From Mytilisepta virgata (taxonomy: Eukaryota; Mollusca; Bivalvia; Mytilida; Mytilidae): a stretch of 64,000 bases of DNA. Positions 2,115-23,600 of the stretch are shown piece by piece. The stretch covers positions 18,569,139 to 18,633,138 of the forward strand of contig CM051512.1 of assembly GCA_028015205.1 (NCBI GenBank). Reading direction: 5' to 3'. Position 1 is the first letter of the stretch. Every line of letters starts with the position of its first letter. The notes below the pieces were generated by a model that saw only the letters and a list, made by a program, of their open reading frames with translations, was not told the origin of the DNA and did not search any database. Position numbers and translations under genes: made by a program.

Positions 2115-2160
2115 TCAAAGAGATACAATGTACGGTGGATTAATTCTGGACACAAAACCC
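2115..2160 (-). CDS. Chain exon j, terminal
   Basis: 46 coding nt after acceptor catgtag|GGGTTTT. Encodes GFVSRINPPYIVSL then TGA at 2117-2115. Minus-strand AATAAA at 1955-1950 is a possible polyadenylation signal. Confidence 0.7.
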
Positions 2161-5100
2161 CTACATGAAGATAAAATAAGTCAAAACAAAAAGACGGTAA
2201 TTTTATTATTGTTCTTCATATGAAAGTCATAGTCAGACTTTAAAAGACTAAAAAACTATATTTGAAATATATAAACAAATGTGCGTTATAAATGACAGAT
2301 TATGGTAAGAAATTTGAAATATATAAAAAGTTGTGCATTATAGACGACAAATTACGGTAATTACGGTAATGACTTTTTACCTGATATCTCTGGGCTGAGG
2401 TAGTGATGGGATGGCAGAATTCATATCTCTGAAGGCATCTGTAAATATATTAAAACATTTCTTATAATACAAAAGAATTCAATCAAATCATATAAGAGAT
2501 ATAACTATTTTTTGTAGATTATAAATTAAATTTTCTTCAAATACAATTTCAAGTGATCAAATCTCTGAAGATGTAAATCTATACCATTCATATGGTTCTC
2601 TGAATGTTTTATATCTTATTTGATATGTGTGTGATTCCTATAATTTGAATAAATTTTACAGTAAATTCATATATAAGCTTTTCGAATTTTCAACTTTATT
2701 ACCGGTATAAGCAAAGTTTAAAACTGAGTATTTGTATAAAAAGTTAAGATTTTTTCTTCTAACCTTGTAACAATATACATAAGGTTAAGAAAAATTATTC
2801 TTTGATTCTCATCCAATCAAAAATTCAGACTGACAAATTTTCTGGGCTTGGTTTTGTAAAACCTCACTTTAAATCTGAGTATTTTTTGAAATGCTAAGTT
2901 GTAAGCAACCCAACTGGACAGTATTTGAGGTGAGAACAAATTGAGGAAATCCTCACATGAAACCCAGACCTGAGCATTTTTCTTTAAAAATTCAGAATGA
3001 AGGGATGAGAAACAAGGAATTAATTCTGGCCTAGGTCATTGATCTTTCACACAATTGAAAAGATACTGTTAATTGTCCTAAAAGAATACAGTAAACAACA
3101 ATTGTTCTTTCAGAAAAAAACCCTTATTTTCTTGTAACTAGCAAAGCCTGAGCAGTAAGATACTTCACACAAAACCAAGGGGCCCATCGAGACTGTATCA
3201 CTCATTTGGCAGCTATTTACTAACATATGTAAAAATATCTATCTTTCATTTTGAACTAAGTAGGACAATCATAGATAATAATTATTTTTGAAATAACAAC
3301 TTAAGAAAATTCCATTAAAATGGGCAAATAATTTTCAGATAAATTATTTTATAGAATCTAATGTTTAAGGCAGACACCATGCATGGTACATGTGTATTTC
3401 ATATTTTAAAAAGGAACCATCTAAATTTGTCCAGCACTTCAAAAAAAAAGTTTTCAAGGACTATTTCATTAAAGACTGGTCTCAATTACCAAATTAATGT
3501 TTTGTTTCATGAAAGATTTTTTAAATATGACCAAAATATAATTTTGAAAAAGAATCATCCAAAGACTAATGAATTTTTCTAATTTGTGCCAATTTTAAAA
3601 AAAAGAGTTTTTGAATATTTTTAGACTATTTTCATTTTTCAGAAAAGCAACCACGTTGGTTAGAGATAAATTACTGAACACCGTGAAGTGGGCCATCACC
3701 CTGTATGAATGGCAATACAGCATCCATAAAACGTTATCAATCTTTTGCCATATTCTATAATGCTTTATTGACAATGGATGACAAGTGATGGAGATCACAT
3801 AGTTCACATCTGGCAATTAGCACCTGCTAAAAACCCTACACCAGAAAGTTATTTTAGCTAAAGAGCAAAGAAAAAAATCTATTCACCCTCACTCATTTCT
3901 TTACACCAATAATTCAAAAGTTTAAGACAACAGAATAAAAAAATTGCACAAGAAGTTTATTTCATTAAGAGAGGTGAAATACTATGATTTCTGAGAAATC
4001 TGATCTTAGTCAAAAGAAAGTTATACTTCACTTTATGAACCATTACATAAAAACATTGCAGCTTAGTCACATAAAAAAGTACATATCCTTATATTTTTGC
4101 ATTAAATCCTGTAAGGCCAATTCAAAATAACTGATAGATTATCATCTACCCCTGCTGACGAATATGGGATACACAGAAGAGTTTTATTTTTCATTACACT
4201 GATCACTCCTAAACTCATGTTTAGCCATGCCAATGTGTGCAAAAATTCTCACAATCTGCAGGTTCATTTGGCTAATCACAGCCACACATCAATTTTTTTT
4301 ATAGGAAACAGTCTTGAGAAATTTCCGAAAATCACCATATATTAAAATAAAAAAATATGGCGTGGGCAAATTTTCAAGGGGTGGATGTGAATGTTAGTCT
4401 ATCAATTATTTGGCCAAAATTAATCAATAAAATACAGATTAACTAATCGTGTACAAACAGAACTGAACACCTTTATCTAATTCATGCATGTGCGATGTGT
4501 ATTAATGTGCTGATTATTGACCTGTTGCAGATTTAAGTTATTCAAGATGGTGATATATGTAGTATAAAGAAACTATAAATTATATATTTATTAAAAGAAA
4601 AAAAATCCTATAAATATTCTGTAAAAAGATGGGCAATCTATAACATAGCCAATTTGTAAGAGCCAAGACTTCAAATAAAATATTTATTTATACAACAAAC
4701 TACATACCGATATATATATACATGTATATATAATGAATTAAAGTCAGTCAAGTAAGCTTATTGATAAAGGATTAGGATTAAGGACAAGGGAATTTCAAAC
4801 ATCACCTATACTAGCATAAACAAACAAATGTAAATCAAAATTTTCTGGCAAATCATTAGTTCACTCAGGGACAAAACAATATATATATATTGAAAAACCA
4901 CATTGACACGCCTAGACTCACAGTTTTCAAATGGGTCTTTTGGCGGACGAATCTGTGCTAAAGTTTCTTCCAAAGTAGGAACACCTTCACAAATTGCAAA
5001 AGGATAACTCCTCCGTTGAGGTGGAGGAGTTAGTGCCCTTGGAATGTGCTGTTGCACTGTTATGATTCGTCTTGGAAGACGTGCTGGGACAGTCTCTGGA

Positions 5101-8100
5101 AACTCGTTGTCTGAGCTCTGTAGTGTGCAGAAATTAGAAATAAAACAGAAATAAAGTTATGAACAGAAAAAGAAGAGAGACATGCTTTTAAAGTTTTATG
5201 GCTGAAAATGAATTTCAATACAATTTTATTGAATATCAATGTTAAATATTATATTTTGGTCCTCTTATCTTATCATATTTTGAACTAAAGTGAATTAATT
5301 TTTTAAAATGTGAAATGCATTTTCAGCCAATCAAGTGCACCTATTTACATTTGTGCTGATTATACTCACAAAATGTTACCATGACAACTCTTACCTGCAT
5401 GAGTATATGCTGTTCTGACATTGAGTCCTACTAAAGTCTGAGCAATGTTTGGTGTGCCTTCATGCAGTGCCACCTGCAGACGATGTTTGAAATCATCTTG
5501 TGTAAATGATCGACGTATTGACATAATTTGTTGCGAGCAGTTATAAAATCCTTCTTCCTCATTACACTACAGCAGGTTAGGAAAAAAGCAGAAAATATAG
5601 AAATACAGCAAGCTACAAAAATGTTTAATACACACTAGCATAAAACTATCTATTGAGTTATCTCTCTTTACCAAGTCCTCTAAAGGGAGAAAATTATAAC
5701 ATTTGATCTCCCTTGGTTTAGGGCATATAACTAGTTAGAAATGACCAAATGAGTTATCTCTCTTTACCAAGTTCTCTAAGTGGAGACAATTCTTACATTT
5801 TATCTCCCTTGGTTTAGGGTAGATAACTAGTTAGAAATGACCTAATGAGTAATCTCCCTTTATTAAGTTATTAAGGGGAGACAATTCTAATTGATTTAAT
5901 ATCCATTGGTTGAGAGAAGACAACTTTTCTTATTTGCCAAATTTTTTGCACAATAGACAATGATCTTTCAAATGTATAGTTAGCACTGTTTGATCTTTTA
6001 ACCAAATATAAAGAAATTCCAAACTTGAAGAAAAGCAAATCTAATATAATTAAATTATCACTGAATGTGCAAATTATGGCAAATAATAAAATTAAAAAAA
6101 TCAATCTAATATTAAACATTCCAAACTAAAATTACTTTTTGGAAGCAACAAATCGATCAAACTAGCTACACCTTCCTTAAAAATGTTATTAACTGCATAT
6201 CTGTGACATTTAAGCTCCATAACTTGGCAGCTAAAACTTATTACAAAGCAACCCATAGCTCTGCCAATTTGTATAGAAGACATTTATTGTGTAACGGGGA
6301 ATGATTAAAAAGAAGCTGTCTTGAAAGACAGTAAATGAGATTTTCCTTCAACACTTATTGATGCAGCCTATCCTTCCACTTTACTGTTCCCTTACATCAC
6401 CAAATTAATAACCCAGTTTTTTCCGTCGGAAAATTCTTTTAAGAACAAAAATCAAGCTAAAGACAGTAAAGATGACTTTTTCACAATGTTAAAGGTTTTA
6501 CAATGACTTAAAATATGAAGAAGAGATATAAAAACAATGGAGTCAAATTTTTCTTCAAAGTGCTTTGGGGAATTTTTGATTATTCTTGAATGTCCAAAAA
6601 GTGTTCAGAACACAACTGTATATTATAATGAATCTACAGTACCTATCCATACTAGCCATGCTATTTTTTTTAATTAAGTGTGTAATGTAGCATTAAATTT
6701 TCAGGTTCTACCAAAATGGCATCTAATTCTAGTCATGGAATAAAATAGCTGTCAAAAGCTCCTAAATCAGATCAGTCCTATAAAGCATTTAATATAGGCA
6801 TTTACATACAGCCTTACAATTACAATACATTATTAAATAATGGTAGCTCCACTATCCTATTCTATACTATTCAGGTCCAACTCATATGAATATACATTCG
6901 AATGAGATGGATACAAAATGTCCACTGGGAACTAAAATTCCCTGTATCAAATCTCAAACCTCTATTTCAAAAACAATTTGTATTTGAAATTCTGTTACTG
7001 CATGCTCTGATATGTGCATGTAAACATTATTAGCTGAATTTTATTTAAATTAAACTTAACTAACAAAAATTTAGCTAAAAATCAATTTTTTCCATCTAGA
7101 ATTATGTCAGGTTTTTTATTTATGCCACTATGCCAATGTCTACTAACTTTCATGCTACTATGCCAATGTCTACTAATGGTTAAGTACTGTTATTTAGAAC
7201 GTGTTTCATGGGAAGAAGAAAAGTGTATTTGAAGAGGGATTTGTATGATAAAAGTTGTCAAAATACACAAAAATCACAATGATCTTAGTTTTTTGTGTGA
7301 AATTTGAAAGAATTAAATTCAGCAGAATAGACTTTAAAATGTCATATTTACTCTTTGTTTAAAAATTCATAAATAAATGTACAACAATTAAAGATAGATT
7401 ACAAGACATAAAATAATGTAATATAATTTTCAGACTTTTTTTCCAGTCAACTCCATTATCTCAGTATTAATTAAAGTCAAAAATATTTTTATATTTCAGG
7501 AGAAAATAAAGAAAAATTATAAAAATCTGCCACCGACAGATTGTTATTTCCTTTATCCTGTTGACAGGACATTTTAATTCTGAAAATTACATGTAGCCAA
7601 ATATTGCAAATCAAAATGTATGAAGTTCAAGATCAGAATAACCAACACCCAAAAATCCTACGAAGTTATAAAATTCAACCAAGGACCATAATAAATGTAA
7701 AATTTTAAATTTATAAGATTCAGTATTAAATAAATTTCACCTCTTACATTCTTACATGCTTTAAAGGTATCAATGTAAAATTTTCTCTGCAAAAAACTGT
7801 CATCATGCAAACATATATGTACTGATACTTTACATTCAACAAAAAGATTAGGTAGTCAATTCAACCAATATACATACCACACACAGATAAAAAATATATT
7901 TCATTACGTTTGGAAAGCACACAAAACCCACCAAAAAAAATATGTTACTATAAATAATTAGCCAATAAAAAACAGACAATGAAGTTTGGATTACCTGTAT
8001 TTTTGGCTCAGGAGTCTATAAAGGGGGAGATATATGAAATGTTAAGTGTTGTCAATTTTTTAAAATCATAAGTGAAAATTATCAGAAATTTTATGAAAAA

Positions 8101-11100
8101 TTATTCTTGATATCAATACCCTATAACTTCATCAGTCACAAAGCAAGCAAATTTATTTTTGTCTACAATTAACAGCCTACACACCCTTATCAAAAACTTC
8201 CAGACTTATATGCTTTAATAACTCATTTCATAAATATCATCCTGTTGTTTAGCAACATTTTATTTTTCTAACTTTTTACTGCTTTCAGTTATCCAAAAAC
8301 TATAAATCAATTATTCATCAATTTCATGCAAAAGCAACAGTTTTATTTATCTAACATTCCAATGCTTTCAATTTTCCTAAAAATAATTACCTGCCAAATT
8401 TCATGCAATTAGTTTGATCAGAAACATTGACAAAATTCTCACAACATCATGATGATTTCTCAGTTAAATATGATAAATATGGGTAAACTCGATTAAATAT
8501 TTCCTTCACCGTGTTAAGTATAAATAAATTCATTGGTTAGACTGAATTCTCAGAACATACTCTTTTTTCGAATAGTGGTGGAGGTGGGAGCTTCTGTCTG
8601 TTTATAAAGTCCATCATTTGGTCATAGGACTGACAAAAATATTTCAAAACTTCCTCATAAAAATATTGACGTCAAAAAAATTCATATGTAAAAACCGTAT
8701 TAAAAATACTCATATAAAGTTTAATTTCAAAATCTCTGACAGTAAATTTTGTAGAAACATAATAATGACAGTGTAAACAAATTGTTTAATTTTAATTTTT
8801 TTTTAAAATAATTAATTCGAAATCCTATGGATCAATTGTCAAAATTTAACATGTCATAATAAAAGATATTTTAACAAAACATTCTGTAAAATCTTTTACC
8901 GTTAGAACTTGTGGACCTCAAATAATTGATGAGCCCTGTTTATCTCCCCTTACATAAAAAACCTAAATTATCTCCCTTTATAAAATCCCAATCTGTGTAC
9001 AACACTTACAAAGAATGCCATTTCTCTCTGTTTGTCTTCCTCTGTACGTTTTTTTATATCAGCCATTCTCTGTAAATGGAAAAAAAAAATACAACACTGA
9101 ATTTCTGAGGTCATTAAAATCAGCATTGAAATCAAATTAATTTTTCATAAAAAAAATTTCCGCAAAAACTTTCAAATAATTTGACTTATTTTAAGCGTAT
9201 AATTCATGAATAAAATGTTTGGGAATGAAGAAATGAAAATCTAAAAAAAAAATTGCCTTTATTCTTTGTGTCAGATCTTATTTTGCAATAATCTTTATAC
9301 ACCACATTGGCAAAACCTTCTTATTTGAGGTTCTTCCATTTTTGTAGATTTTGTGATATGATAAATTCACATGCAGCTTTCTCTTAAAAATATAAAAATA
9401 TACAGAACCTTGTTCATTTGCAAGTATCCTAGAAATTTAGTAAATAAATTAACTGGACTATATTTTCTAAAGTGAGTTATGAAATGCCTTGCAGATATTT
9501 TACAAAATTAACAATCTAAGAATATAACTTTCATCATCAATCCTAAAAGTGGGTTTACAACTAAAATTATGGTATTCACTTTTTGTGCTCTTTCTATGCT
9601 CCTCTCCTCAGCAAAACAAGGAATTCCTCCATTTCTTCTTCCCTCATATTTACTGACAAAATGTGGTTCTTTCTTCTGTGCTCTCATAAACTTCTCAAAA
9701 CTTGTTGTCGTCTGTAATAGAGAAAACATCAATTCTGTAAAACTTGTCATTTGTACAAAAGTTTATATAGTGGAAATAAAACAAATTGTATATATACATG
9801 ACCTACTTTTTAAAATGAAAAGCATCAAGCATGACCTACTTTCAAAAATGAAAAGCATCAAGCATGACCTACTTTCAAAAATGAAAAGCATCAAGCATAT
9901 TTTACAGATCTACAAAAAACATATGCTAATAAATAAGGAAATGAACACATTTTTGTATCAATGTCAAAATTTCCAGCATAGATATCTTAGCAGAAAAGAT
10001 TAAGAAGAAACCAGATGTAAATGAAAGAAATTTATGATGGATATCATCAAAAGCTATGAAATATATCTGATCATGAACTGGAGATGTATAACATTTCTTC
10101 TTGGCATGTAATTGAGATATGAAATTCGTTAGTTAAGCATGATTTTTTGAAGAAAAAGACATATCTACATGTAATTTACATATGATGTTGTTAGATTCCT
10201 CTTTCCATCACAAAATGGTGTGTCACTTTAACCATTAAGTATCAAATCAATGTAGCTAAAAAAAACTTTTAATTGTGAGCTGAAGGTAGAAGCTATTCAC
10301 TTTAGTATAACACAGCCATGAAATCTAAATGATCAATTAATAACTCAAGATAGATGTTCTTGTTAGCAAGTCTTAAATATGTTTTAATAAGCTATATGAG
10401 ACCGTAAAATAAATTATATAAAATGTGTTTAAAAAATACTAAGTTTATAGATGTTTAAAAAAGAAACTGTGCCCATACCAGACAAACAAGATATTCCTTA
10501 AATAAAACAGCCCCCTAATTCTAGAACAATAATCTATACATTTTCTAAAGAAAAAACCTTTTGCCAATTTCTAATTCTTACTGGTTTCAAATCCACAGAA
10601 GATGTTTTTGTAACAGGTAGGGGTAGAGATACAGGTCTTATACGTTTGATGGGTTTCACTTTAGCTAATCTAGTACAGCCAGGCAGCTGTCAAGCAGAAT
10701 AAATTGTTTTTTTTTAAATGTTTTTAAAACTGTTTACTATCTCAAAATTCAGATAGATCAATTGACAATAATTTTCGTTATTTAAATATTGACTGACACA
10801 CTTTTTATTTTGACTGATTAATCTATTGACAAATAAATATTCATTAATTTTTTTTTTGCAAGATGGTCAACCATATCTTCAACATTCTAGCTTATATTGA
10901 CAACACAACAACACAGTTCTCATTAAACTAAATAATAAATAAACTTTGGAAATCAATGACTTCTCTTGTTTATAGTAACTGTGCAATATCTCATGTTAGC
11001 AATGTTCAACTTGCAGTTTAAACTCACTTGAAAAAAATCAGGGTGATTAAAACAACATTAAATCTAACATGCATTTATTTTTCGTAAATAAGTCGTTGAG

Positions 11101-11359
11101 AACCATCAATTCAGCCATTCCTCAAACAATAGATATTATTAAAAATACTAATGAGGTATCTTTGGTAAGCACTAAATATTTAATTTTGGTTGTTAAAATA
11201 CATTTCAAAATCTTTAAATTAACTAAGCAAATCTGTTTAAATTTTATGCCAAATAAAATTAATAAATCACACCAGTTCTACTTTTGTTTCTACATGCAAA
11301 CAACAAATTCTATTTTTACCAACCTTTGACCTTCGGAGCAACATGGCTCCTCGAAAGAC
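2115..11359 (-). CDS. Ten-exon chain: alternative C-terminus of the carboxypeptidase, or a separate gene
   Basis: Exons 11359-11324, 10686-10582, 9711-9580, 9069-9010, 8629-8561, 8015-7995, 5566-5395, 5110-4922, 2438-2381 and 2160-2115 join in one frame and end at TGA 2117-2115. All borders are GT-AG. The first six are phase 0 throughout, so they fit after exon 16 and would give a carboxypeptidase of about 1097 residues. Alternatively the first exon holds an ATG in fair context (GGAGCCATGT), preceded in frame by the TAG of the acceptor, which would start a separate protein of about 290 residues. The protein is basic and proline-rich with no domain I recognise. A minus-strand AATAAA lies at 1955-1950. 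Confidence 0.72.
2381..2438 (-). CDS. Chain exon i
   Basis: 58 nt, acceptor tttacag|ATGCCTT, donor ATCAG|GTAAAAA. In phase 1 it reads AFRDMNSAIPSLPQPRDI. It agrees with the exons on both sides despite 2.5 kb of intron upstream. Confidence 0.72.
2439..4921. other. Intron between chain exons h and i
   Basis: 2.5 kb AT-rich intron. Apart from the inverted-repeat element at 4112-4416 and an AT-rich run at 4709-4735, no structure was seen. Short ORFs at 3361-3582 and 3595-3816 look like chance. Confidence 0.5.
4112..4416. mobile_element. MITE with TAAGGCCA-type ends
   Basis: The left end taaggccaatt...ctgatagattatcatc is matched in reverse by ...gatgtgaatgttagtctatcaattatttggcca. The arms are about 40 bp with mismatches. 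Related in its ends to the element at 53491-53834. Confidence 0.6.
4922..5110 (-). CDS. Chain exon h
   Basis: 189 nt. The acceptor that keeps the frame is gagctcag|ACAACG; another AG seven bases upstream would shift it. Donor AAACT|GTGAGTC. Encodes HIPRALTPPPQRRSYPFAIC and EGVPTLEETLAQIRPPKDPF. Ends in phase 1. Confidence 0.78.
5395..5566 (-). CDS. Chain exon g
   Basis: 172 nt, acceptor ctgtag|TGTAATG, donor ATGCAG|GTAAGAG. Encodes NCSQQIMSIRRSFTQDDFKH and ALHEGTPNIAQTLVGLNVRT. The other two frames contain stops. Ends in phase 1. Its EGTPNIAQTL segment resembles one in the next exon. Confidence 0.82.
5654..5940. repeat. Tandem repeat, about 96-bp unit, three copies
   Basis: Units begin near 5654, 5751 and 5847 with gagttatctctctttaccaa-like sequence and include atctcccttggtttaggg. 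The third unit is more diverged. It lies in the intron between exons f and g. Confidence 0.8.
7995..8015 (-). CDS. Chain exon f, 21-nt microexon
   Basis: Acceptor ctttatag|ACTCCTG preceded by a CT-rich run (tctcccccttta), donor ATACAG|GTAATCC. Encodes TPEPKIQ. Phase 0, so inclusion is optional for the frame. Confidence 0.6.
8561..8629 (-). CDS. Chain exon e
   Basis: 69 nt, acceptor ttgtcag|TCCTATG, donor AAAAGA|GTATGT. Encodes SYDQMMDFINRQKLPPPPLF then EKR. Phase 0. Confidence 0.8.
9010..9069 (-). CDS. Chain exon d
   Basis: 60 nt, acceptor tttacag|AGAATGG, donor TTCTTT|GTAAGTG. Encodes RMADIKKRTEEDKQREMAFF, a likely charged helix. Phase 0. Confidence 0.75.
9580..9711 (-). CDS. Chain exon c
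   Basis: 132 nt, acceptor attacag|ACGACAA, donor CAAAAA|GTGAAT. Encodes SFEKFMRAQKKEPHFVSKYE and GGIPCFAEERSIERAQK. Phase 0 at both ends. The overlapping plus-strand frame is a shadow. Confidence 0.8.
9797..9900. repeat. 33-bp tandem repeat, three copies
   Basis: Unit containing atgaaaagcatcaagcatga, repeated at a 33-bp period. It adds in-frame repeats to a chance plus-strand ORF. Confidence 0.85.
10582..10686 (-). CDS. Chain exon b
   Basis: 105 nt, acceptor ttgacag|CTGCCTG, donor CCA|GTAAGAA. Encodes LAKVKPIKRIRPVSLPLPVT and flanking residues. Basic and proline-rich, phase 0 at both ends. Confidence 0.75.
11324..11359 (-). CDS. Chain exon a (36 nt)
   Basis: Acceptor attttag|GTCTTTC, donor AAAG|GTTGGTAA. 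Encodes VFRGAMLLRRSK in phase 0. Either a small internal exon or the first coding exon of a new gene starting at the ATG within it. A second possible donor 4 nt further on would break the frame. Confidence 0.5.
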
Positions 11360-11544
11360 CTAAAATTAGCACAGAAATTCTCACTGGTTGAAAAAAAAAA
11401 GCATAAACATGAAGTTCTGGGAATTGAATTGCAAATTAGCAAACAAAGCCAAATTTAAACACACAAATACAGGTTTCCCTTCTATTTTCTTATCATAAAC
11501 ATTTTTTTTTGAAGAAATAAATTCAGTAATTGTGTTTGTTTAGT

Positions 11545-11805
11545 TGGGGTTTTACTCTGTTTTCAGCAAATTTGGCTATTTCGCGGCGGCCAGTTTTTAT
11601 TGGTGGAAGAAGCCAGAGTACCCGGAGAGAACCACCGACCTTCGGTAGGAAAATTGCAAATCTTTGTCAATTAAGATCAGAGTCGAATACACCCTGCTAC
11701 AGAAGTTTCAAAACTCACAACCTCAGTGTTGACAGGCTAGTGATCATTAGTAGCCATGACAAACTACCAGACAAATCGGCCACCCAGGCCCACTGTATAC
11801 TTTAA
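11545..11805 (-). mobile_element. tRNA-derived SINE
   Basis: Read on the minus strand: gtggccgatttgtctggtag (A box-like), then ggttgtgagttttgaaac (B box-like), then a body with ggtggttctctccgggtact and ggccgccgcgaaatagcc. This body is widespread in molluscan DNA as I recall it. The promoter boxes have decayed, so the copy is old. It is not a functional tRNA gene. Confidence 0.75.
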
Positions 11806-11989
11806 AACATTTCCTATAATGCTCTGTTTGTGACAATATTCATACCACTGGTTTGAAAGAAAAAAATTATGTGCCATTATTTGAACAAAGCCATAGATAC
11901 ATAACATTATAATACACCCTTAGAAATTATTTAACAAGTCAATAAGAATAAGGTAATTCTGATCCATGCAGTATCATTCACTTTCTCAA

Positions 11990-12222
11990 CATACGACGGG
12001 ACCAAAATTAAAGGCTGCATGGAGACTGTATTGCTCACTCTGATTTTATTTGCCATTTAAGTTAAAATTTGGTATTAATGGACACCATGATAAAAGAGTA
12101 ACACCTATGTCATTGTTAAGTAAGTTCAGTTGCATAGTTAATATGAAAAGTTAATGGACGGACGACAGACACCAAGTGATGACAATAGCTCAAACTGGCA
12201 TTTGGCCAGGTTAGCTTAAAAA
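11990..12222. repeat. Repeat copy with GGACGGACGACAGAC tail and hairpin end
   Basis: Contains ggctgcatggagactgtatt, then ggacggacgacagacaccaa and the imperfect hairpin agctcaa..ttagct at 12189-12218. Same family as 130-1125. Confidence 0.65.
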
Positions 12223-13487
12223 GTATTTAGAGGGTTGTAAAAGTAAACAAAGTTCTACAAAATACAAATCAAATATTAGGACTATAGACAGTAATCAATC
12301 CCATGATAATTGAGGGCAATGAGCTTGTCAAACCAGAGCTTACTTATCCATACTGTCAAAAAATAAGATACTTTTTCTCGAAAACATTGCAACTCTAACA
12401 CAAATAATTTTTTAATATTACTGGTATAATCTATGTTCATTGTTATAAAGTGAACATGCCGTAAAATAAATTTCTGTAACACTGTACAGATGTTTCATGT
12501 GATTAAAATAAAATACATTTGTGTATTTATACCCCAGTAATGGATAAAGGGCAGTTTATTCTTTATTTGCATAAATTAAAGTAAGAAGTTGAGAAAAACT
12601 AAAAATCTGGAAAACAAAACTTGCCAAAAGCTTAAAATCTAGAAAATTCCACAAAATTAAAACCTATGTGAATAAGAAGAATTTCCACTTTCAATTTATG
12701 AATTCATTCCTCGTACGATTGGGGGTTAATCTGGGAAAATTGTGTTATTAGACATTTTTGCTTTGTGACATTAAAATTCTGCAGGAAAATGTACTACAAG
12801 TAATTGCAAAGTAATCTATATAAATACACTCATTCCTATACGAAATAAGAGTTATCTCTCCTATCTTCAATTTATATAATAACTTGTTACACTGGATTAT
12901 AGCCCAATATCTTTGTTGTTTTATCATACAAAGTTCTACCCATTTATGGTAAAAAAAAATACTAATCTACTTTTCAACCACAAAACAATAACACTTAATT
13001 CCCTTTTTAGCAACAAACTGCAAATTTTGTCTTAAAATGACACAAAAGCTTTTATTTTTATTGGTGTATTTTCACGAACAAGTTATCTTTCTTCTTTTTC
13101 ACAGGCATTGGTGAATTATTTGTTATTCATACACTCAATGTAATATTTCAGAATTAATTACTGCTACACAATAATTTCAATATTTTTCAAAAATAAGTTT
13201 ATTAATGAATTAATAAATATTACAGCTTGTTGCATATGTTCAATTTCTAATAATGTTTTCTAAAGGCAGTTTACTATTCAAATTTACATGTACCTGAAAG
13301 TTATCAACAATGTCAAACTTTTAAGAATAAAAAAATTCCACCTTATAATACTTTCCTGTGACCAAAATAAAAACTATCTACATAAGACATACCACCATCT
13401 ACATTGTATATCTAAAAGTAAAATTTTCCAATACTTGCATTTTTAAAAGGGAAAACACATGGCTAAAATACGCAAAAATTAATTACA

Positions 13488-13497
13488 TTTATTTATT
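13488..13497 (-). terminator. Candidate polyadenylation signals for the short form
   Basis: Two overlapping AATAAA hexamers on the gene strand, about 500 nt beyond the stop at 13994. Weak evidence in AT-rich DNA. Confidence 0.3.
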
Positions 13498-13993
13498 GAA
13501 ACCATTAAATACTATGTGATCTTTTAACTGTCACTATAATTATGAAATATTTTCAATATTTTAGAATAGGAGCAGAAAAAAATCGCTGCTATGAGAGGTA
13601 AAAAATTGTAATTGTACAAATGATAACATACAATCTGATATACTGTGATCAATTTTGAAATTTTTGCCAAGCATTTTTTAATTTGAATCTTTCTTCATAG
13701 ACAAAATTTAAAGATTAACTGATTCAAGTGATGCACCTTTTGTAATAAGTTATCACTAGCAAAAATCAAAATGCAACTATTAATTATTGCAATCTGCATC
13801 GTGTTGCATTCTTTTAACAATAATAACAATTCTAATTAATATCCAAAATAATTTAGTAGTAAAATATTCCATATTTACATACATAAAGCCAGTGGCAGAT
13901 CATGTAATTACTGAATTATACAAACACTATAAGCAATTTAAATTTAAAAAAAAAACTTGAATTTCTCTTTAACAGAGTTCCTTGATGAGAATT

Positions 13994-14620
13994 TTATCCC
14001 AATGAACTTCCCTTTAAACCTGAGTTTCTAAACATGTTTCTAGCATAAAACCAAGTTTTCTTTTTATTTGATTTGACTGTTCTTTTGAGGGAAGTCATTG
14101 TTTTGTTCGAATTCATGTCCAATGTAAATATTTTTGGTTTCACATCAAAAATCACACTTCTGTTTATTTCTTTCATATCTATTTTCCTATCATATACTTT
14201 CCATTTTTCATTTAATTTAGGAATGTCAACACAAGAGGTATTCATGGCAAATCTATGATTAACATTAAATGTTTCTTCTGATTTGATTATATTTTCTCCT
14301 TTTGTCAGATAATCTCCTAGAATTCTTTCACTGATCCTAATTTTCTCTATTTTCATCAAAGAACCTTTTCTCTTTAAAGTTGTATTAAATTTTTGCAACA
14401 TTAAAGGCCTGCTTTGCTTGCAATTTTCAAAATCATTTTGATTTTTAACAGATATACAATTATTATCATCTGTCATGGATGTATTGTCCATTTTTGTTGC
14501 TTTTACGCAATACTTTTGTCTAAGTGGTGATGCAGCATTTATAAATCTAGGAAAAGTTACAGATTTTTTCTGAATGACACTAAAATCTAAAGAGCTACGA
14601 GGTTTTACCAAAGCTGTTTT
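13994..14620 (-). CDS. AGBL2: AGBL2-like exon 17, terminal exon
   Basis: Acceptor tggctag|AAAACAG continues exon 16 in phase 0 for 208 codons to TAA at 13996-13994. The tail is basic and has no domain I recognise: it starts [15 protein letters not shown] and ends [12 protein letters not shown]. Minus-strand AATAAA signals occur about 500 bp downstream (near 13488-13497). A possible internal donor TGC|GTAAAAG (near residue 37 of the exon) could turn it into an internal exon. The length of the open frame in such AT-rich DNA argues that it is coding. Confidence 0.65.
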   Translation of the reverse strand, partial: KTALVKPRSSLDFSVIQKKSVTFPRFINAASPLRQKYCVKATKMDNTSMTDDNNCISVKNQNDFENCKQSRPLMLQKFNTTLKRKGSLMKIEKIRISERILGDYLTKGENIIKSEETFNVNHRFAMNTSCVDIPKLNEKWKVYDRKIDMKEINRSVIFDVKPKIFTLDMNSNKTMTSLKRTVKSNKKKTWFYARNMFRNSGLKGSSLG

Positions 14621-17600
14621 CTAGCCATGTGAGCATGATAAGATTATAGACAATGTACAACAATATAAAGATCAGTCACACAATATATGATGTTAATAGT
14701 TAAAATATATTATGAATGAGGTATAAAACAGGCTGACATGCAAATTATTCATGTTATAAATTTTTTCAACAAACTGAAATATCATTGGACAAATTATAAT
14801 GATTCATATCTAGTATATTTTTTAATAAAACTAATTACATATGAAATGTGATTTTATGATGAAACTGTCTGTCAGTGATTATCAAAATATTCATTATATT
14901 TCTTTGTTGTGTGTAATTTTTTTTGATATTCCCGTAAATATATAGATCACATGACTTCTTTTGGTATCCCCTTCAATATATAGATCACATGACATATGTT
15001 GGTATCCTCTTCAAAATATAGATCACATGACCTATTTTATTTTATTTTATTTTACCTATTTTGGTATCCCCTTCAACATATATATACCTATAGCAGACCA
15101 GTGCTAGGGGTTTTCTTGACATTGTTGTGAGGTGCATTATTTTTCTCTATACTTAAGGCCTAACTATGACTTTCAGATGAAGAACAGCAATAGGCCTTGC
15201 TTCTTCCTATATGCTTCTTTACTAAACCAAAAAAAAAAATTATTTAAAAATAAAAATTTTAACTACTAAACATTTCTTACACAGAACAAGCTATTCTACA
15301 TTTCCCCTGCTCCCTATAAATTTCAATTTCTTAAATTCAATTTACTTTAAAAGCTAATTTCATACATGTCACTGAATTTCAAAGGGAGAAAACTTTTGTA
15401 TGATTCTTACCTGCTTTGGTACAGATTTGTCTCCCCTTTCTCTTTCACTGAAGTCTGAACATGCAGTTATATTGGGTAACGCCTGATGTTAAAAGTACAA
15501 AGGACAATGGTAAATAACTACAACAGCATGCATGAGAATAAAATTAAACCAAGGATATTAATAAGCAAAGAGAGAAACATTAAAAATAAATTTTTTTATA
15601 AACATGCTAAATTAAAAAAAAACCTTCAAAATGATTTCTTGTTCATATATTTAATTGTATTTTTTTAAACAAATAAATATTTATACTAAGGCGTCATCCA
15701 TAATTGTCAACATTTTTCACGAGATAACAAACCGCACAAAGGGGATTCCAAATTCAACATTTTTAGCGAGCACTTTATAAAAATCAGTATGTCAATTCCG
15801 TAAAATAGAGAATACATGCTGATGATATTGATAGAATTCATGATGCTGAAAAAGTTGTGAACAGTATATAAGGTAACAAAAATCCAACAAACAGCAAATC
15901 ACTGAGCATGCTCTGGACTTGGTACATGCATTTTGAAGGGATGTACATTTAACAATGTCTGTAGATTATCTTTCCGAGTGGAGTGGTACCTGTTCACGGC
16001 AACAATGTTAAAAATTGTTCAGACGTACACTTTTTGAGGGTGGGTGGGGGTTTCCAAAAAAAAAGCTCTTTGTAAACTTGTGAAAAACATTGAAAATTAC
16101 AAATGACCTCTTAGAGTTACACAAATGTTAATTTTAGGCTCAAAACTTTCTAGGATATTAGGTCAAGAAATCTCCACTACTGCCTTTGTAAATTTCGTCG
16201 GACATCAATTCAAATGAACAAGGACCCATCATTGTCGTAACACAATGCAATGATCGAGATAAGCTTTAGCACTTGATTTTGCAATTTCATAGATGCAAAC
16301 CCCTTTTTTGGTCCTATCAGTAAAAACAATCTGAGTTGTCAGTAATTTGTAACTTTTTTCAGTAATCATAATTATTCATAGAATACTATTGCGTTCATCA
16401 ATATATTCGGAATCGTACAAAGACCAAACAGATCGTTTTATAAAGCAAATAATCCTGACACATCCCGAAAGTATTTAAAAATCTGACTCTCTATTGTGCT
16501 TTATCTTTACACGATAATAACCTGTAATGAAAGATTAAAATCTAAACCAGGAACGGTTTTGGATAGGTAATGAACGGAAATCCGTAATGATAGACAATAA
16601 ACCGTAACACCGTAATTTTGACCTGAAATTTGTAATAATTACGGAAAAATCGTAATGGTTTTCATCTATGCAATTTTGATCGAAATTTCGGTGAATAAGA
16701 TCGCTTGTCATCCAATTACATACTACAGAGTTTATATTCAGATCTTTTATACTGCATTGTGAAAATCACTTCATGGTGCAGATTGCTTTTGTGACTGCCA
16801 AATTTGCTTAGCTTATCTAGAACAATGAAAGTGTTCAAGTAATAACAACATGCAATGATATTAACAAAATCTACCATTAGGCCACATAATATTAATTATT
16901 TGATTCTTACCCTCATCCAGGTCTCCTCTTAACCCTCATAGTCAAAATAATTTATTACAACTGTTAAAATTTAGATTAATACTTGTATGCTTAATGCCTT
17001 CAATTCATGTTTTTTTTGTTAATACGTCAACTGAAAACTGACTTGTAGCAAAATGTTTTAGTTATTTCAAAAAAATGAAATAAAAGACAGGTTTGGGACC
17101 ACTTATATATTTAAGGATGCATATTATTTTTTTTTTTTGGAAAGATAAAAATATTTTTTCCTTTAGCAAATTATAAATTCCATCCTCTCAAAATATTTTT
17201 GAATGGATTAGACAAGAATCTAAAAAAATAATTTTATGTGGCCTCGAAATATCACATACAAATATGTCTAACTTCATAAAATAGACTTTTTTTTCAAAAA
17301 CTATTTATCAGACACACACAATATGTAAGTATGAAACAGGAGGGTAGGGCAGGCAAAGAGAATGTTTTTTCTTTTGACTGCAAAGGAATCAATTTTATAT
17401 AAGTAATTAGTTTACACCATATACTTCCAGTGTTTCATACAACCCTATGTAATATTTTAATTAGAAATGACTACAATCCTCTGTTACAACCAATACCATA
17501 TTCCAGAATCTGTGGGTCTTCTCCGCCAATGGAAATCAAATTTTTCTGGAATTTCCTTGTATATATACAAAATACCAACAATATCTTCTATCCTTTATAA

Positions 17601-20600
17601 CACTTACATCCAATTCACTTTCTATAATTTCTTACCATTTTTAACTAATTTTCTCTTCTTTTCAGAAAAATAAGACATTTTTAGGGCATACATTTCAGTG
17701 GAAAAGAAATAAACAGGTTTTACCCCCCCCCCCCCCCTCCCACCAATGCTAATCACCATTAATGAGTTGATCTGTAGAAGCACAATACCCTGGGTATTCT
17801 GCATTTGCCAATACTGAGAAACATAATAACCAGATCAGCAACTGTTTCTCCTTTTCAAAGTTGCCTAGGCAACTATTCCACATATGTATTTAAAAACAAT
17901 TAAAAAAGAGAAATATGTATGTTAGCAACCAGATAAATATTATATTGTAAGTGTATTGTATCACTTGAGTGAGAAACCAGAGTGAGTTATATTTTCTTAA
18001 CCAATGTAGGTAAGGGAGATAATAAATTTGTCTCCCTTTTAGCCTCAGGACAAAAGGGGGAGAATTTAATTATCTCCCTTTCCTACATTGGTTAGGAAAA
18101 GATAACTCACTCTGCTTCCTCATTATGACATAAGAATAATACAATATATACTGGAAATTATGTAATATATACCTATATAAATGTATATGGAAAGGACGAA
18201 AATAGTCATTATATATTCTATTATCATATATGATAGAACTTCAGTCGCTTATATAACAAAGGCTCAGACAAAACAGTTTTAGAAAACAAAGCTCTACAAA
18301 GTTGAAATTTCTGTTTAATGATTTTAAAAGAAGCTCATAGATTTTATTTCATCACTGTTTGGAGCCTCCAGATTTTATTTTTTTTTCGTTAAAAAGCAAA
18401 GCATTAAATTTGTTTGATTTTGAGCGACTAATGTTCATTTGTATAACATAAAGTTAGGAAACAATAATAGTATTATATCTTGGAAATAAATAAAGACTTA
18501 AGAGTTATAACCAGACACCAAAATCTTAAAGGGAAACTGTTGTAAGGGGAGACAACCATGACCATTGCCAGAACCATTTCCATAGAAATCAGCAACAGTG
18601 AAATGCATTTCTGAATCACATAACCATATCTTATCGAAATTTTTTAAAGGTACTTATTTTGGTACATTTTTATAGGCCAATCTTTAAATTTTTAATGGAA
18701 AAAAAAAAAAAAAAAAAAAAAAGTCACAGACATTCTTTTCACTTTATAAAGAAATTCCATCCAAATTATTTTATCCATCTAATTTTAATTTCAATATCAT
18801 AATATTTATTAATTTTTTTGTGATAGATTAAAGACTTGGAAGAAAGCATATCACTGTAGAAAAAAAGACATCTTTACCTCTCCAACGACAAAATTTCTTT
18901 CATTTCTAATATGACGTGGACATGGAGTTGGCAAATCCTATCAAGTTGTAAAAGAAGATATGAGAAAGGGAGACAACTTGCCAATTAAGGTAGTTCCAGA
19001 ACAAAATCCTCCCATTCTATCTAAAAAAACTTAAGGGCTAATCCTTGTTTTAATTTTTTGTTCATCAGAATCAGCATCCAAGTCATACATGATTAAATTA
19101 AAAAAACAATTCATGAAAAATAACAGTTTTAAAATAAAATACATACTGTGCTTGAAAACATTTCTAGATCAAGGGACATCTCTAGGAAAATCCAGTTGAA
19201 GTCTCTTTATTAATATTACAATGTGGAAGATTTTATAAATTAAGTGTAATGGTTGTAAGGAAAAAACATTTTCTAATGAAGTAAAAGTCAAGCAGGAAAA
19301 ATACAGCTTCAAACCAACTACGACATGCACGGAAAACATTTTATCCTTTGTAATGTCACCTTACATTTATTCTACTAAAGTAGTGTTTCAAATGACAAGT
19401 CGGAACAATTTTTTATCCCCAACACTTACAGTTAATGATTTTGACCGAGATTCGTCTTTCGTCTTATCTGATCCCCCAGAGCCATTTTTACGATCTTGTT
19501 GTTCCTTGTCTCGTTGTTTCCGTGATTTTCGTTTCTTTTTCTTTGATTTGGGTTCTACTGGCTTCATTTCTGGTTCCGATTCACTGTCACTGTCACTTGA
19601 ACTGTTTTGTGAAATCAATAAAAACATATTATTTAAGAATATGTACACAAAAATAAGTTCACTAAAAACATTTTTTTATTTCACATTTATTTGTTAATAC
19701 CATGACTATCTAATTGGAAACTGGCCCAACAGAACACAAATATTTGTTCAGAAAATTGAAGCTCAATTTATGTCGAATAAATTTTCAAACGACCTTCATA
19801 GCCTAGCGTCAAATAAAGATATCAAGGCAGACTTACTCAGACTCCTGCATGACTTCTCGCACGTTCAACTGCGCTAAAATTTTTAAACATCCATCCATGG
19901 TTTTCATTGAAGCATTGTCCAACAAATTATCAACATCTTTCCGACTGAGATTTGATTGTGATTTTTCTATCTTTTTAGTCTTTTTCACTTTCTTTTCCTC
20001 CAGAAGATTTGTACTAGTTTCATGGTCCATGCATGTCATAAGGGCTTCTGTAAAAACTGGAGTGGAGATAGTTTCTGGCTCTGGAGTTGGTTTTTCATGA
20101 CTAGACTCTATGCCAGAATCTACAAAAATACATTTATTACTAAAATAAAATATGTTTTATCTTCTCTATCCAAAATTGCAACAAACATTCACTATTAGGT
20201 ATTAAAGATAAAGATAAGATAAAGATATTTTATTTCCTAATCATAGGGCTCATAACAAGCATGTAATCACATAAAGTAAAAATAAAAAGCCTTTCTCTCC
20301 TACTCGCATACACTCACACATACACTATCGTTCTGATTAAGGATGATTGATTTAACAATACAGCATGTAAATGAAAAATAAAATACAGACACAAATGTAT
20401 TTTTATGAGGAGAGTCAGTTGCCTACATTGTATGTATGGAACGAAGGATAACTCTTACTGCCCAAAAAAGAAAAAAAAAAAAAAAAAAAAAATCAAGTAT
20501 AATGTGACAATGAACTGGTGAAGACTATAAATAAAGTTTTATAAGTTTCAGTTAAGCAAATATTTAGTTTCTCAGTGTATAAAATGAGGATAGCAATTCA

Positions 20601-23600
20601 CATAATTTAGAGTTAAAATCAAGGCTATCGTTTGACATGAACCAAATAAGCAGATTACTATCGGATATTTGGGATAAATATGGGTATTTTGTAAAGAGTT
20701 CATCCAGAAAGGTTTTTCTTTCCTTATTATAAAGGGTACATTTAAATAAAAAATGTTCTTCGTCTTCAACCGAGTTCAATGAGCAAAACTGGCATGTTCT
20801 CTCTGATCTTGGCAGTGTAATATTTTTTCCATGTTCATCAATTTTTCGTTCGTAACGGCCTCTCTTAGAAATGATTCTATTGTACAAGCACTTACAAGAC
20901 AATTTTATATTTCTAGGAAAATTCATCTTCTTGTGAAGAAGAGAATGCTACTAGTTTTTAACATGACTAAAGGGGCTGACAATGCATATATTGCAATTGA
21001 AATCAATTAAGAAATGCAAGCATGATTTTGCTTACAATGTCAGAAACAGGAAATCACTTCAAAAATGAACAATGTGGAATGAACAAATTTCTGCAAGTCA
21101 AAATCAACTGTTTAAATGCTTTTGCCGTGGACTGAAAAAATTAATTTCATTCTGCTGACAATTTCATACCTATTGTATTATTGACAATGGTATTACTGGA
21201 CCTTTCCCCAATCATCAACGCCTTGAGGTTTGGTATCTTTGCCCTATCCACCAAACCTCTCTGTTCCAAAACCTGCTGTGTAACATATCTTGTCAGTTCT
21301 AACACCATTTCCGACTGTTTTCTGTAACAAGTAATTTCAAATAAATCGATACAATTTTAACATGTCTTCTGATTGGTTCATTTTTATCAGTCTATCATCT
21401 CGTACACTAAACTTTTCTTTTCTACTGTGAAATCAGTAAAAGGAAACCCAATGATTAAGGCCTTAACTTTGAGAATCCAAAAATTTGTGGGTGTCTGTGT
21501 ACTATGTCATTCAGGTTACTTCTTCACATACCAAACAAAATTACAGTCATTCTTTCAAAATTTTATTAAATTTTCTATTGTTAAATTTTTCTTAGTGATC
21601 AGACTGGGAACTGTAGCAAACCTTATAATCTATTGCAAAATACTGTGAACCACGTAGTTTAAAGGACATATTTAGGATGAATTATATTGACATTTTGGTA
21701 TCTGTATTTTCGGGGGACCACGCAGTACTGTGGCATGGGGTGTTACTCACTACTAAAGATCATATGTTAATTCCTAAATGTTACCAGTCTCTTACCAAAT
21801 TTAATCTAACATGATCTTGCCTTTCATTTTCACCAATATTGGTTAAAAAAGTGATCATATTTCAATTATCAACATAAAGTATAAGAAAACAAGAAGCTCT
21901 TTGAGTGAGCAAAAAGAATTCTCCTTCATCACTGTTTGGAGAAGACTTTGTCAAACGAATAACCAAATTTTTTTCATTAAAAGTATTAAATCACCGTCAT
22001 TTTTATCCTGTTAATATGAAAAACTGTCAAGGAATAAATGGATAGTTTTTGGTATAAAAAAATTTGGTGAAATTATGTGCCTTGGTTCACTCACACAGTA
22101 TGTTGTGAAAGTGTCATTTGTGCTGACATCAGTATATTAGAAATGACAAAATTAAAGACTTAAATGTTCCTTACCTCTTTTTCTTACTTAAAAATAAACA
22201 TTGTAACATAGTAATACAAAACATGCTTTGAGATGCTACATTTTGCAAACATGTGATGTGTCGCATTTCTGGGAATCTTTTTTTTATTTTTTTTTGTTAT
22301 GGCTCCACCTTTTCTTTTCATTAAACATTTAAGTCTGGCTCTCACAATCCTAAATTTTATTATAGACTCTTGAATAATAAATTTCAAAATCTCACAATTT
22401 ACAGAGAAAATTCTCATCCTTGGCTATTCCGCAATGATCATGTTTGTATTTGATATTAAGTCTTATATTAAAGAATTTTCAGTTTCCAAATAATTAAATC
22501 TATTTAGTCAAAGAAATACAAATAATTTACCATTTTTATGTATGTTCACATAAATTTGGATGTAATATAAGATGGCAATCAGATTTTTACTGAGTGTAGA
22601 AGTCAGAAAACTAAAGAATCCACTTATCTTTGGCAGAAGACAAATTTTACAACCTAAGATTAGACGAAAGCAAACTTCAACAACTAATACTACTTACGCA
22701 TTATTTTCCTGAGTTTTCTGATACTCTAGCACCGTTTGACACAAAACTTTACCCATATCCTGGAAATCGTTTACATTGAAATGCCGTAACTGATTCCTGA
22801 AATGCATGATTTGTTCTCAGTTAGTACATCCTTATCATATGCATGATTAAGATTATTTATCATCAGGACAGTATTAGTAGAAAAGTCTCTGGTTTAGCCA
22901 AATTTAATTGCTGGGTAGGGTGTGATTACTATATAATACCTATGATGGCAATTTTTTCTATGCATGTAAATTTTTTTTCTATACATTGTATTGCTTCGGA
23001 TAGAATTTTACTTTACAGATAAGTAACTATATTTTGCCCATGTCATCACAGTATTTCCAGCTATTATTTTTTTGCTATATCAGATCTATAGTGGACATAT
23101 AACTCGTTTTGTTTTGAAACATTTCCATCACATTTTATTTTACTTCGTCCATTTTTTATCTTAGTAAATATTTGATATATCAGATCTATAGTGGACATAT
23201 AACTCGTTTTGTTTTGAAACATTTCCGTCACATTTTATTTTACTTCGTCCATTTTTTATCTAAGTAAATATCCTTGACTATTAACATGAAGAATATACCA
23301 ATTTGGCATATAAAATGTTGAACTTCAGAAGTTGTGTAAAATGTCTTCCCTATTTTTGTTTTGTTTTGTATTTTTTAATCTTAAAGGGCGTTTCATTTTT
23401 AAAATTACAATAACAGGGGTTTATCCAGGGTTATTGGGAAGGGTCGATTTTGGCCTATTTTGGGAAAAATTTTGGTCAATTGGGAACAAAAATTAGAGGT
23501 GTAAGTTAACATTTTTGGGAATTCTGCAAGATTTTAAAATAATTTCCATTGGGAATGGGTCCTTTTACCGGACCCAGCTGGATGGTAGAAAAATCCAAGA

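What the first reader, a model, noticed from the sequence alone, without database searches (positions are those of the whole stretch)
2115..15482. One carboxypeptidase gene with two tails, or a hidden second gene behind it
Exon 16 ends in phase 0. It can join the terminal exon at 14620 (stop at 13994) or a ten-exon chain from 11359 to 2115 that keeps one frame to its own stop. All borders in the chain are GT-AG. The chain may be a long C-terminal extension of the deglutamylase, or an unrecognised protein of about 290 residues encoded head-to-tail behind it. Either is worth describing.
Basis: partly seen in the sequence, partly recalled or inferred. Interest (0 to 1): 0.75.

Follow-up and report, generated by a model that had tools for sequence, protein, structure and literature searches.

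The report
Carboxypeptidase tail with swappable exons
The suspected second gene is the long, heavily spliced tail of one mussel-type gene for a tubulin-trimming enzyme, and two neighbouring look-alike exons in that tail appear to be used one at a time, a choice also seen in oyster and scallop gene models.

Summary
The chain is real, but it is not a second gene. It is the C-terminal tail of one CCP2/3-type cytosolic carboxypeptidase. In a search with the tail region, 68 of 68 hits carried both Pepdidase_M14_N and Peptidase_M14. Eight of ten chain exons have homologues. Exons 2 (10686-10582) and 10 (2160-2115) do not. The stop at 2115 is not the gene's conserved end: the last exons lie 0.5-6.5 kb beyond the window's left edge, and exons for a long N-terminus lie beyond the right edge.

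With exon 8 starting at 5117 instead of 5110, both are 3n+1 and phase 0 to 1, so exactly one must be spliced in; both or neither gives a premature stop. Of 75 full-length models, 43 carry only exon 7, 27 only exon 8, none both, five neither. I read this as a mutually exclusive exon pair in the tail of a bivalve deglutamylase. The alternative 14620-13994 tail is single-copy with no homologue found: unproven. What the tail does is inferred.

The parts
42446..42704 (-). First coding exon of the short N-terminal form (MAVVSQEKTKIN...), joins 36327 in phase 1
   Evidence: Frame and GT donor; tblastn of M. galloprovincialis P0014 residues 1-103 at 42704-42402, 75.7%
15411..36327 (-). Fourteen exons of the carboxypeptidase core, 36327-36135 to 15482-15411: Pepdidase_M14_N, Peptidase_M14 and linker
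   Evidence: With the first exon one open frame of 782 aa, GT-AG; PF18027 38.0 bits and PF00246 56.3 bits, above cut-offs; colinear with P0013/P0014
13994..14620 (-). Candidate alternative terminal exon, 208 codons plus TAA stop; AATAAA at 13497
   Evidence: Open in phase 0 from 15411; no hit among 87 proteins nor in the search that held it; one match in the genome, itself; weak coding signal; AATAAA
11324..11359 (-). c1, 36-nt cassette VFRGAMLLRRSK
   Evidence: Mussel VFRGALVLERAK (P0013, P0021, P0022) and oyster AFQGSFVLHRSK at the same place; c1-like pattern in 28 of 87 proteins
   Evidence: 0 hits in 87 proteins; 9% of 1334 intron segments score as high
9580..9711 (-). c3, first half of conserved block A (SKYEGRRNGGIPCF.EERS)
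   Evidence: 93% identical to P0002; block A pattern in 71 of 75 full-length proteins
9010..9069 (-). c4, second half of block A, predicted helix
   Evidence: helix 810-838 of the P0014 model, pLDDT about 50-69
8561..8629 (-). c5, 69-nt cassette (SYDQMMDFINRQ...)
   Evidence: Present in P0013-P0015, P0001, P0004, weaker in oyster P0033/35/36; not covered in P0002, P0016-P0022
7995..8015 (-). c6, 21-nt micro-cassette TPEPKIQ
   Evidence: TPEPRLQ/TPEPKLQ in P0006, P0013, P0014, P0016-P0019, P0001, P0004; skipped in P0015 and P0020
5395..5566 (-). c7, 172 nt, phase 0 to 1; exon of the mutually exclusive pair; second acceptor at 5473 gives a 79-nt form
   Evidence: c7-only in 43 of 75 full-length models; short form VAL.EG in P0021, P0022, P0071-P0075; frames
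4922..5117 (-). c8, 196 nt, phase 0 to 1; partner of c7.
   Evidence: c8-only in 27 of 75 full-length models; P0013 starts at the homologous SSDSDF; hhalign c7 vs c8 P = 2.4e-5; 0 of 200 column shuffles
2381..2438 (-). c9, shared exon after the pair, phase 1 to 2
   Evidence: 83-90% identity to Mytilus proteins
   Evidence: 0 hits in 87 proteins; codon score -0.207 against an intron mean of -0.151. Homologues continue into exons outside the window at window coordinates -462 to -602, -1555 to -1696, -3079 to -3111 and -6517 to -6549 with stop

Best explanation
The region is the 3' half of one gene on the minus strand encoding a cytosolic carboxypeptidase of the CCP2/CCP3 type. The chain encodes its C-terminal tail: optional cassettes c1, c5 and c6, a constant block A (c3 + c4), a pair of duplicated exons c7/c8 of which one is spliced in, a constant exon c9, and further exons outside the window ending in ...IRGIKVKTES. 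Shown by sequence: tail and enzyme are one protein in bivalve and gastropod models; c7 and c8 are homologous, adjacent and of the same phase; either alone keeps the frame, both together (c8 from 5117) give a stop 65 nt before the end of c8, and neither gives a stop after five codons. Inferred: selection is enforced at least partly by loss of the frame, with decay of misspliced mRNA; the tail is a mostly unstructured adaptor that places the deglutamylase on particular microtubules, and the c7/c8 choice changes its binding or phosphorylation. At the aligned threonine c7 carries an acidic context (T-x-D/E-D/E) and c8 a proline context (S/T-P). Kinase classes are recalled, not tested.
For: Tail-region search: 68 of 68 hits carry PF00246 + PF18027. 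A second search seeded with a gastropod tail gave 8 hits, seven of them new; six of the seven carry both Pfam domains, P0087 only PF18027. P0002, P0014-P0018 and P0020 splice 15411 to 9711; P0013, P0021, P0022 splice 15411 to 11359. Full-length tally: c7-only 43, c8-only 27, both 0, neither 5 of 75. Both kinds occur within M. californianus, Mizuhopecten yessoensis, Crassostrea virginica and Ostrea edulis. Frames. Homology of c7 and c8. Ruditapes P0077 carries a c8-like exon (hhalign P = 6.5e-5, score 28.1, against a top of 16.9 in 100 shuffles). Complete frame to the end outside the window, 1080 aa (c7) or 1088 aa (c8), no inner stop. Motif contexts.
Against: No RNA reads were available; the isoforms are database gene models, shown as representatives of 90% clusters, so hidden members could include both exons. 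Two short models (P0001, P0005) do join c7 to c8 sequence, and in-frame acceptors for that exist at 5110 and 5056 (135 nt, by arithmetic; start). Five full-length models have neither by this test. c7 and c8 are only weakly alike in the window itself (8 of 34 gapless positions; blastp E = 0.001 for that pair), and hhalign gives probabilities of only 76% and 25% in two settings. No intron pairing beyond chance was found. Tail function has no direct evidence: no Pfam family, no PDB relative, model pLDDT mostly below 50 in the tail. One c7-type row (Haliotis) also has S-P at the aligned site.
Confidence: 0.85

Rival explanations
1. The chain is a separate gene of about 290 residues lying head-to-tail behind the carboxypeptidase.
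For: A few short database proteins (P0001, P0004, P0005) are annotated as stand-alone pieces of the tail; c1 has an in-frame ATG.
Against: 68 of 68 tail-region hits are carboxypeptidases; the joining junctions are present in ten Mytilus models: three with c1, seven skipping to c3.
Confidence: 0.02
2. c7 and c8 are independently included cassettes rather than mutually exclusive; both can be present through the acceptors at 5110 or 5056.
For: P0001 and P0005 hold both; the acceptor at 5110 keeps the frame in this genome, and that at 5056 does by arithmetic (135 nt; start).
Against: 0 of 75 full-length models hold both; P0001 and P0005 are short models (262 and 334 aa); the upstream acceptor (exon start 5117), which fits the P0013 form, shifts the frame after c7.
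Confidence: 0.13
3. The 14620-13994 exon is a genuine alternative last exon, making a short-tailed enzyme of 990 residues.
For: 208-codon frame in phase with 15411; 1 of 100 Markov windows has an ORF as long; codon score reached by 8 of 400 intron segments; AATAAA at 13497; one match in the genome.
Against: No homologue in the search that held it, nor among 87 proteins, though one search also missed the bivalve tails and so was not very sensitive; GC 0.29, like introns (0.31) and unlike the exons (0.39).
Confidence: 0.3

Closest known systems
Cytosolic carboxypeptidases CCP2/CCP3 (AGBL2/AGBL3), tubulin deglutamylases
   Same: Pepdidase_M14_N + Peptidase_M14 and invariant M14 residues; sources name several relatives cytosolic carboxypeptidase 2 or 3. 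A review table lists CCP2 at centrioles and basal bodies and CCP2/CCP3 as deglutamylating (PMC7970040, passages).
   Different: Carries a long spliced tail with block A and c7/c8. The named hits are all molluscs, in searches of limited reach.
Annotated molluscan models such as M. californianus LOC127723104, C. virginica LOC111129975, M. yessoensis LOC110465752
   Same: Same gene with the same tail exons.
   Different: Mostly named uncharacterized protein; no held paper contains any of six such locus ids.
Two-exon mutually exclusive clusters of 3n+1 exons, e.g. FGFR2 IIIb/IIIc (recalled)
   Same: Adjacent homologous internal exons; frame lost if both or neither is used. NMD as a contributor to exclusivity is described in PMC6071210 (passages).
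   Different: Lies in a carboxypeptidase tail. The listings showed no description of one there.
CCP5-like solved structures (8v3m and others)
   Same: Nearest PDB relatives of the catalytic part.
   Different: The best match covers residues 165-517 of P0014 only; no tail.

Membership tests
Cytosolic carboxypeptidase (M14, CCP) | CCP N-terminal domain PF18027 before the M14 domain | tested here: met
   38.0 bits against cut-off 23.2, residues 136-236
Cytosolic carboxypeptidase (M14, CCP) | Peptidase_M14 PF00246 | tested here: met
   56.3 bits against cut-off 21.6, residues 294-450
Cytosolic carboxypeptidase (M14, CCP) | Zinc and catalytic residues (HPGE, NYR, HGH, late Glu; roles recalled) | tested here: met
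   Present in the window protein; invariant in the alignment of 27 relatives
CCP2/CCP3 subfamily | Orthology to CCP2/3 rather than CCP1/4/5/6 | tested here: inconclusive
   Only source names; no tree was built
CCP2/CCP3 subfamily | Removes glutamates from tubulin tails | not testable with these tools
   Needs enzyme assay
Mutually exclusive exon cluster (definition in PMC3228551, passages) | Neighbouring internal exons, surrounded by further exons | tested here: met
   c7 and c8 are 277 nt apart, between c6 and c9
Mutually exclusive exon cluster (definition in PMC3228551, passages) | Similar length and same reading frame | tested here: met
   172 and 196 nt (57 and 65 whole codons), both phase 0 to 1
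Mutually exclusive exon cluster (definition in PMC3228551, passages) | Sequence homology | tested here: met
   hhalign P = 2.4e-5, probability 76%; 0 of 200 column shuffles, best 19.4 against 23.9
[quoted passage not shown]
   70 of 75 full-length models hold exactly one, 0 both, 5 neither; two short models hold both; no reads

The most novel reading that the evidence does not exclude
An ancient splice switch in the tail of a tubulin deglutamylase, present in mussels, oysters and scallops and probably venerid clams, swaps an acidic-context threonine module for a proline-context one and so redirects or re-regulates the enzyme between microtubule populations, with exclusivity secured by reading frame.
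Probability: 0.3. Interest if true: 0.65.

Novelty: new variant of a known kind. Interest (0 to 1): 0.45.

Why it matters
It replaces a suspected orphan gene by a long, richly spliced tail on a known enzyme family. Here the catalytic part is well conserved while the tail varies by splicing, with an exon choice shared by mussel, oyster and scallop models. That gives a testable way in which one deglutamylase gene could act differently in different cells, for example in heavily ciliated gill (inference). It also shows how a keep-the-frame rule can join two alternative exons into a false protein.

Tried and rejected
Separate gene: rejected. A third copy of the c7/c8 motif in the constant part (TMDGCLKILAQLNVRE): profile comparison no better than shuffles (18 and 20 of 100 as good). 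Docking-type pairing between the introns around c7 and c8: longest stretches 13 and 14, within the range of 10 shuffles each or below it. PDB relatives of the tail: none below E = 0.6. Pfam: none for the tail; a sub-threshold Crinkler hit for the 14620 tail (E 0.058, below cut-off) is taken as chance. Fold of P0014 with a 27-sequence alignment: mean pLDDT 48.4, too low for a fold search, so none was run. Counterparts of the oyster Cys-pair cassette in the window: best E 0.02, in the wrong intron. Papers: the listings showed nothing on this tail by title and abstract start; PMC7232765, which names a cytosolic carboxypeptidase once, was not opened. Passages of PMC13279043 were seen and not used. 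Six locus ids occur in no held paper. Copy number of the tail in the genome: not answered.
Full report
1. The observation. The ten-exon chain is as described: 295 residues in one frame, GT-AG throughout, entering in phase 0. Upstream, a 15-exon model from an ATG at 42704 to 15411 gives 782 residues with consistent phases, containing PF18027 and PF00246 above their cut-offs. The alternative 14620 exon is open for 208 codons.

2. One gene, not two. A search with the chain alone gave 12 proteins, among them Mytilus coruscus 'AGBL2_3', in which the end of the enzyme is fused to the chain. tblastn of that protein onto the window runs colinearly from 23723 to 2380. A search with the full model but scored only on its tail region gave 68 hits, all with precomputed PF00246 and PF18027: by the names shown, 66 from bivalves, one from a gastropod (P0076) and one unnamed (P0030). 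A further search, seeded with a gastropod tail and the 14620 exon, gave 8 hits: Babylonia again and seven more gastropod proteins, six with both Pfam domains and P0087 with PF18027 only. That search returned none of the bivalve tails, so its reach was short. By strict patterns, 71 of 75 full-length proteins (900 aa or more) contain block A and 71 of 75 the M14 motif, 67 of 75 both; the misses are P0026, P0053, P0058, P0079 (block A) and P0027, P0052, P0080, P0087 (M14).

3. Which chain exons are real. Against all 87 proteins, c2 and c10 had no hit, and c1, c5, c6 and c8 had hits; c3, c4, c7 and c9 match by tblastn. c1 is a 12-residue cassette seen in mussels (VFRGALVLERAK) and oysters (AFQGSFVLHRSK) directly before c3. 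Codon scores agree: c1 and c8, not used for training, score 0.169 and 0.233 against a training mean of 0.170, while c10 scores -0.207 and the intron mean is -0.151; c2 and the 14620 tail are intermediate (-0.001 and -0.010).

4. The true ends. The 3' exons of the Mytilus proteins are not found in the window but lie just outside it on the same contig: window coordinates -462 to -602, -1555 to -1696, -3079 to -3111 and -6517 to -6549 with the stop of ...IRGIKVKTES; an alternative last exon (SGIADEAFQRL...) starts at -3889. The long N-terminal form has exons at about 73440-72786 and 85067; its join to 36327 in phase 1 (HVHN, as in P0013) is by arithmetic. The gene therefore spans more than 90 kb and both edges of the window.

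5. The exon pair. c7 and c8 align (c7 RRSFTQDDF...ALHEGTPNIAQTL, c8 PRALTPPPQ...AICEGVPTLEETL). In the window they share 8 of 34 gapless positions. Family profiles of 13 and 6 hand-picked rows give P = 2.4e-5 at a probability of 76%; in a rerun with other settings P = 1.5e-4 at 25%, and 0 of 200 column shuffles reach the score (best 19.4 against 23.9). With that start, c7 is 172 nt and c8 is 196 nt, both phase 0 to 1. c7 alone or c8 alone stays open; both give a stop 65 nt before the end of c8; neither gives a stop after five codons of c9.

6. Usage. Proteins were classed by blastp of the window's c7 and c8 at E 1e-3, overlapping hits going to the better exon. Among 75 full-length models, 43 have c7 only, 27 c8 only, 0 both and 5 neither; among the 12 short proteins, two (P0001, P0005) have both, eight c7 only, two c8 only. 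Of the five, P0078 ends before the slot, P0086 (Biomphalaria) has a very divergent segment ending in GYTHAD, P0077 (Ruditapes) has a c8-like exon (P = 6.5e-5 over 25 columns), P0079 (Mya) shares part of that sequence by eye, and P0080 (Potamilus) has another segment. Both forms occur in separate models of M. californianus, M. yessoensis, C. virginica and O. edulis. The gastropod models found use c7-type sequence, apart from the divergent P0086. An internal acceptor in c7 (5473, 79 nt) is used in mussel, oyster and Ruditapes models. The definition of mutually exclusive exons that I used, and the statement that only 0.56% of other exons on the fly X chromosome share length, frame and homology with a neighbour, are from passages of PMC3228551.

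7. How it may work. CCP2 and CCP3 are listed as deglutamylating, with CCP2 at centrioles and basal bodies (PMC7970040, passages). The tail has no Pfam or PDB relative and is predicted mostly unstructured with one longer helix in block A, at low confidence. I infer an adaptor tail. At the aligned position c7 rows carry S/T (12 of 13; one Asn) followed by x-D/E-D/E (13 of 13), and c8 rows S/T-P (6 of 6); one c7 row, Haliotis, is also S-P. That these are CK2-like and proline-directed kinase contexts is recalled. My odds: gene structure about 0.97; mutual exclusivity about 0.85; functional reading about 0.3.

8. The 14620 tail. One match in the genome, itself, no homologue found, moderately unlikely by chance. 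It may be a young, lineage-specific last exon; reads must decide.

9. Limits. No RNA data. Homologues are cluster representatives of gene models. The protein search needs shared five-residue words, so absence outside molluscs is weak evidence.

Noticed in passing
window:5395-5473 (-): Alternative acceptor inside c7, encoded by the Leu-Gln codons (CTGCAG|GTG), used in mussel, oyster and Ruditapes models: an in-frame 79-nt short form.
   Followed up: partly
window:42446-42704 and genome C5 at window coordinates about 72786-73440 and 85067 (-): Two alternative N-termini: a short form starting at 42704 and a long form from exons outside the window, both fitting 36327 in phase 1.
   Followed up: partly
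genome C5, window coordinates -3889 to -4158 (-): Alternative last exon SGIADEAFQRL... of the same gene; Mytilus and scallop models have a similar end.
   Followed up: partly
P0023, P0029, P0034 and other oyster and scallop proteins (linker before block A): Optional cassettes with Cys pairs (HCFQCSRNLHG; FEPFKCSKCM) that could form a small metal site across exons; for the oyster one no convincing counterpart in the window.
   Followed up: partly
window:20567-20947 (-): 127-residue open frame inside an intron that looks by eye like the cysteine-rich end of a LINE reverse transcriptase; not searched.
   Followed up: no
window:25325-26017 (+): Longest ORF of the window, 231 codons made by eye of tandem copies of about 45 residues: a repeat, not a gene by appearance.
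   Followed up: no
window:5640-5885 (-): About two and a half tandem copies of a unit of about 95 nt (...CCTAAACCAAGGGAGAT...) in the intron just before c7, seen by eye.
   Followed up: no
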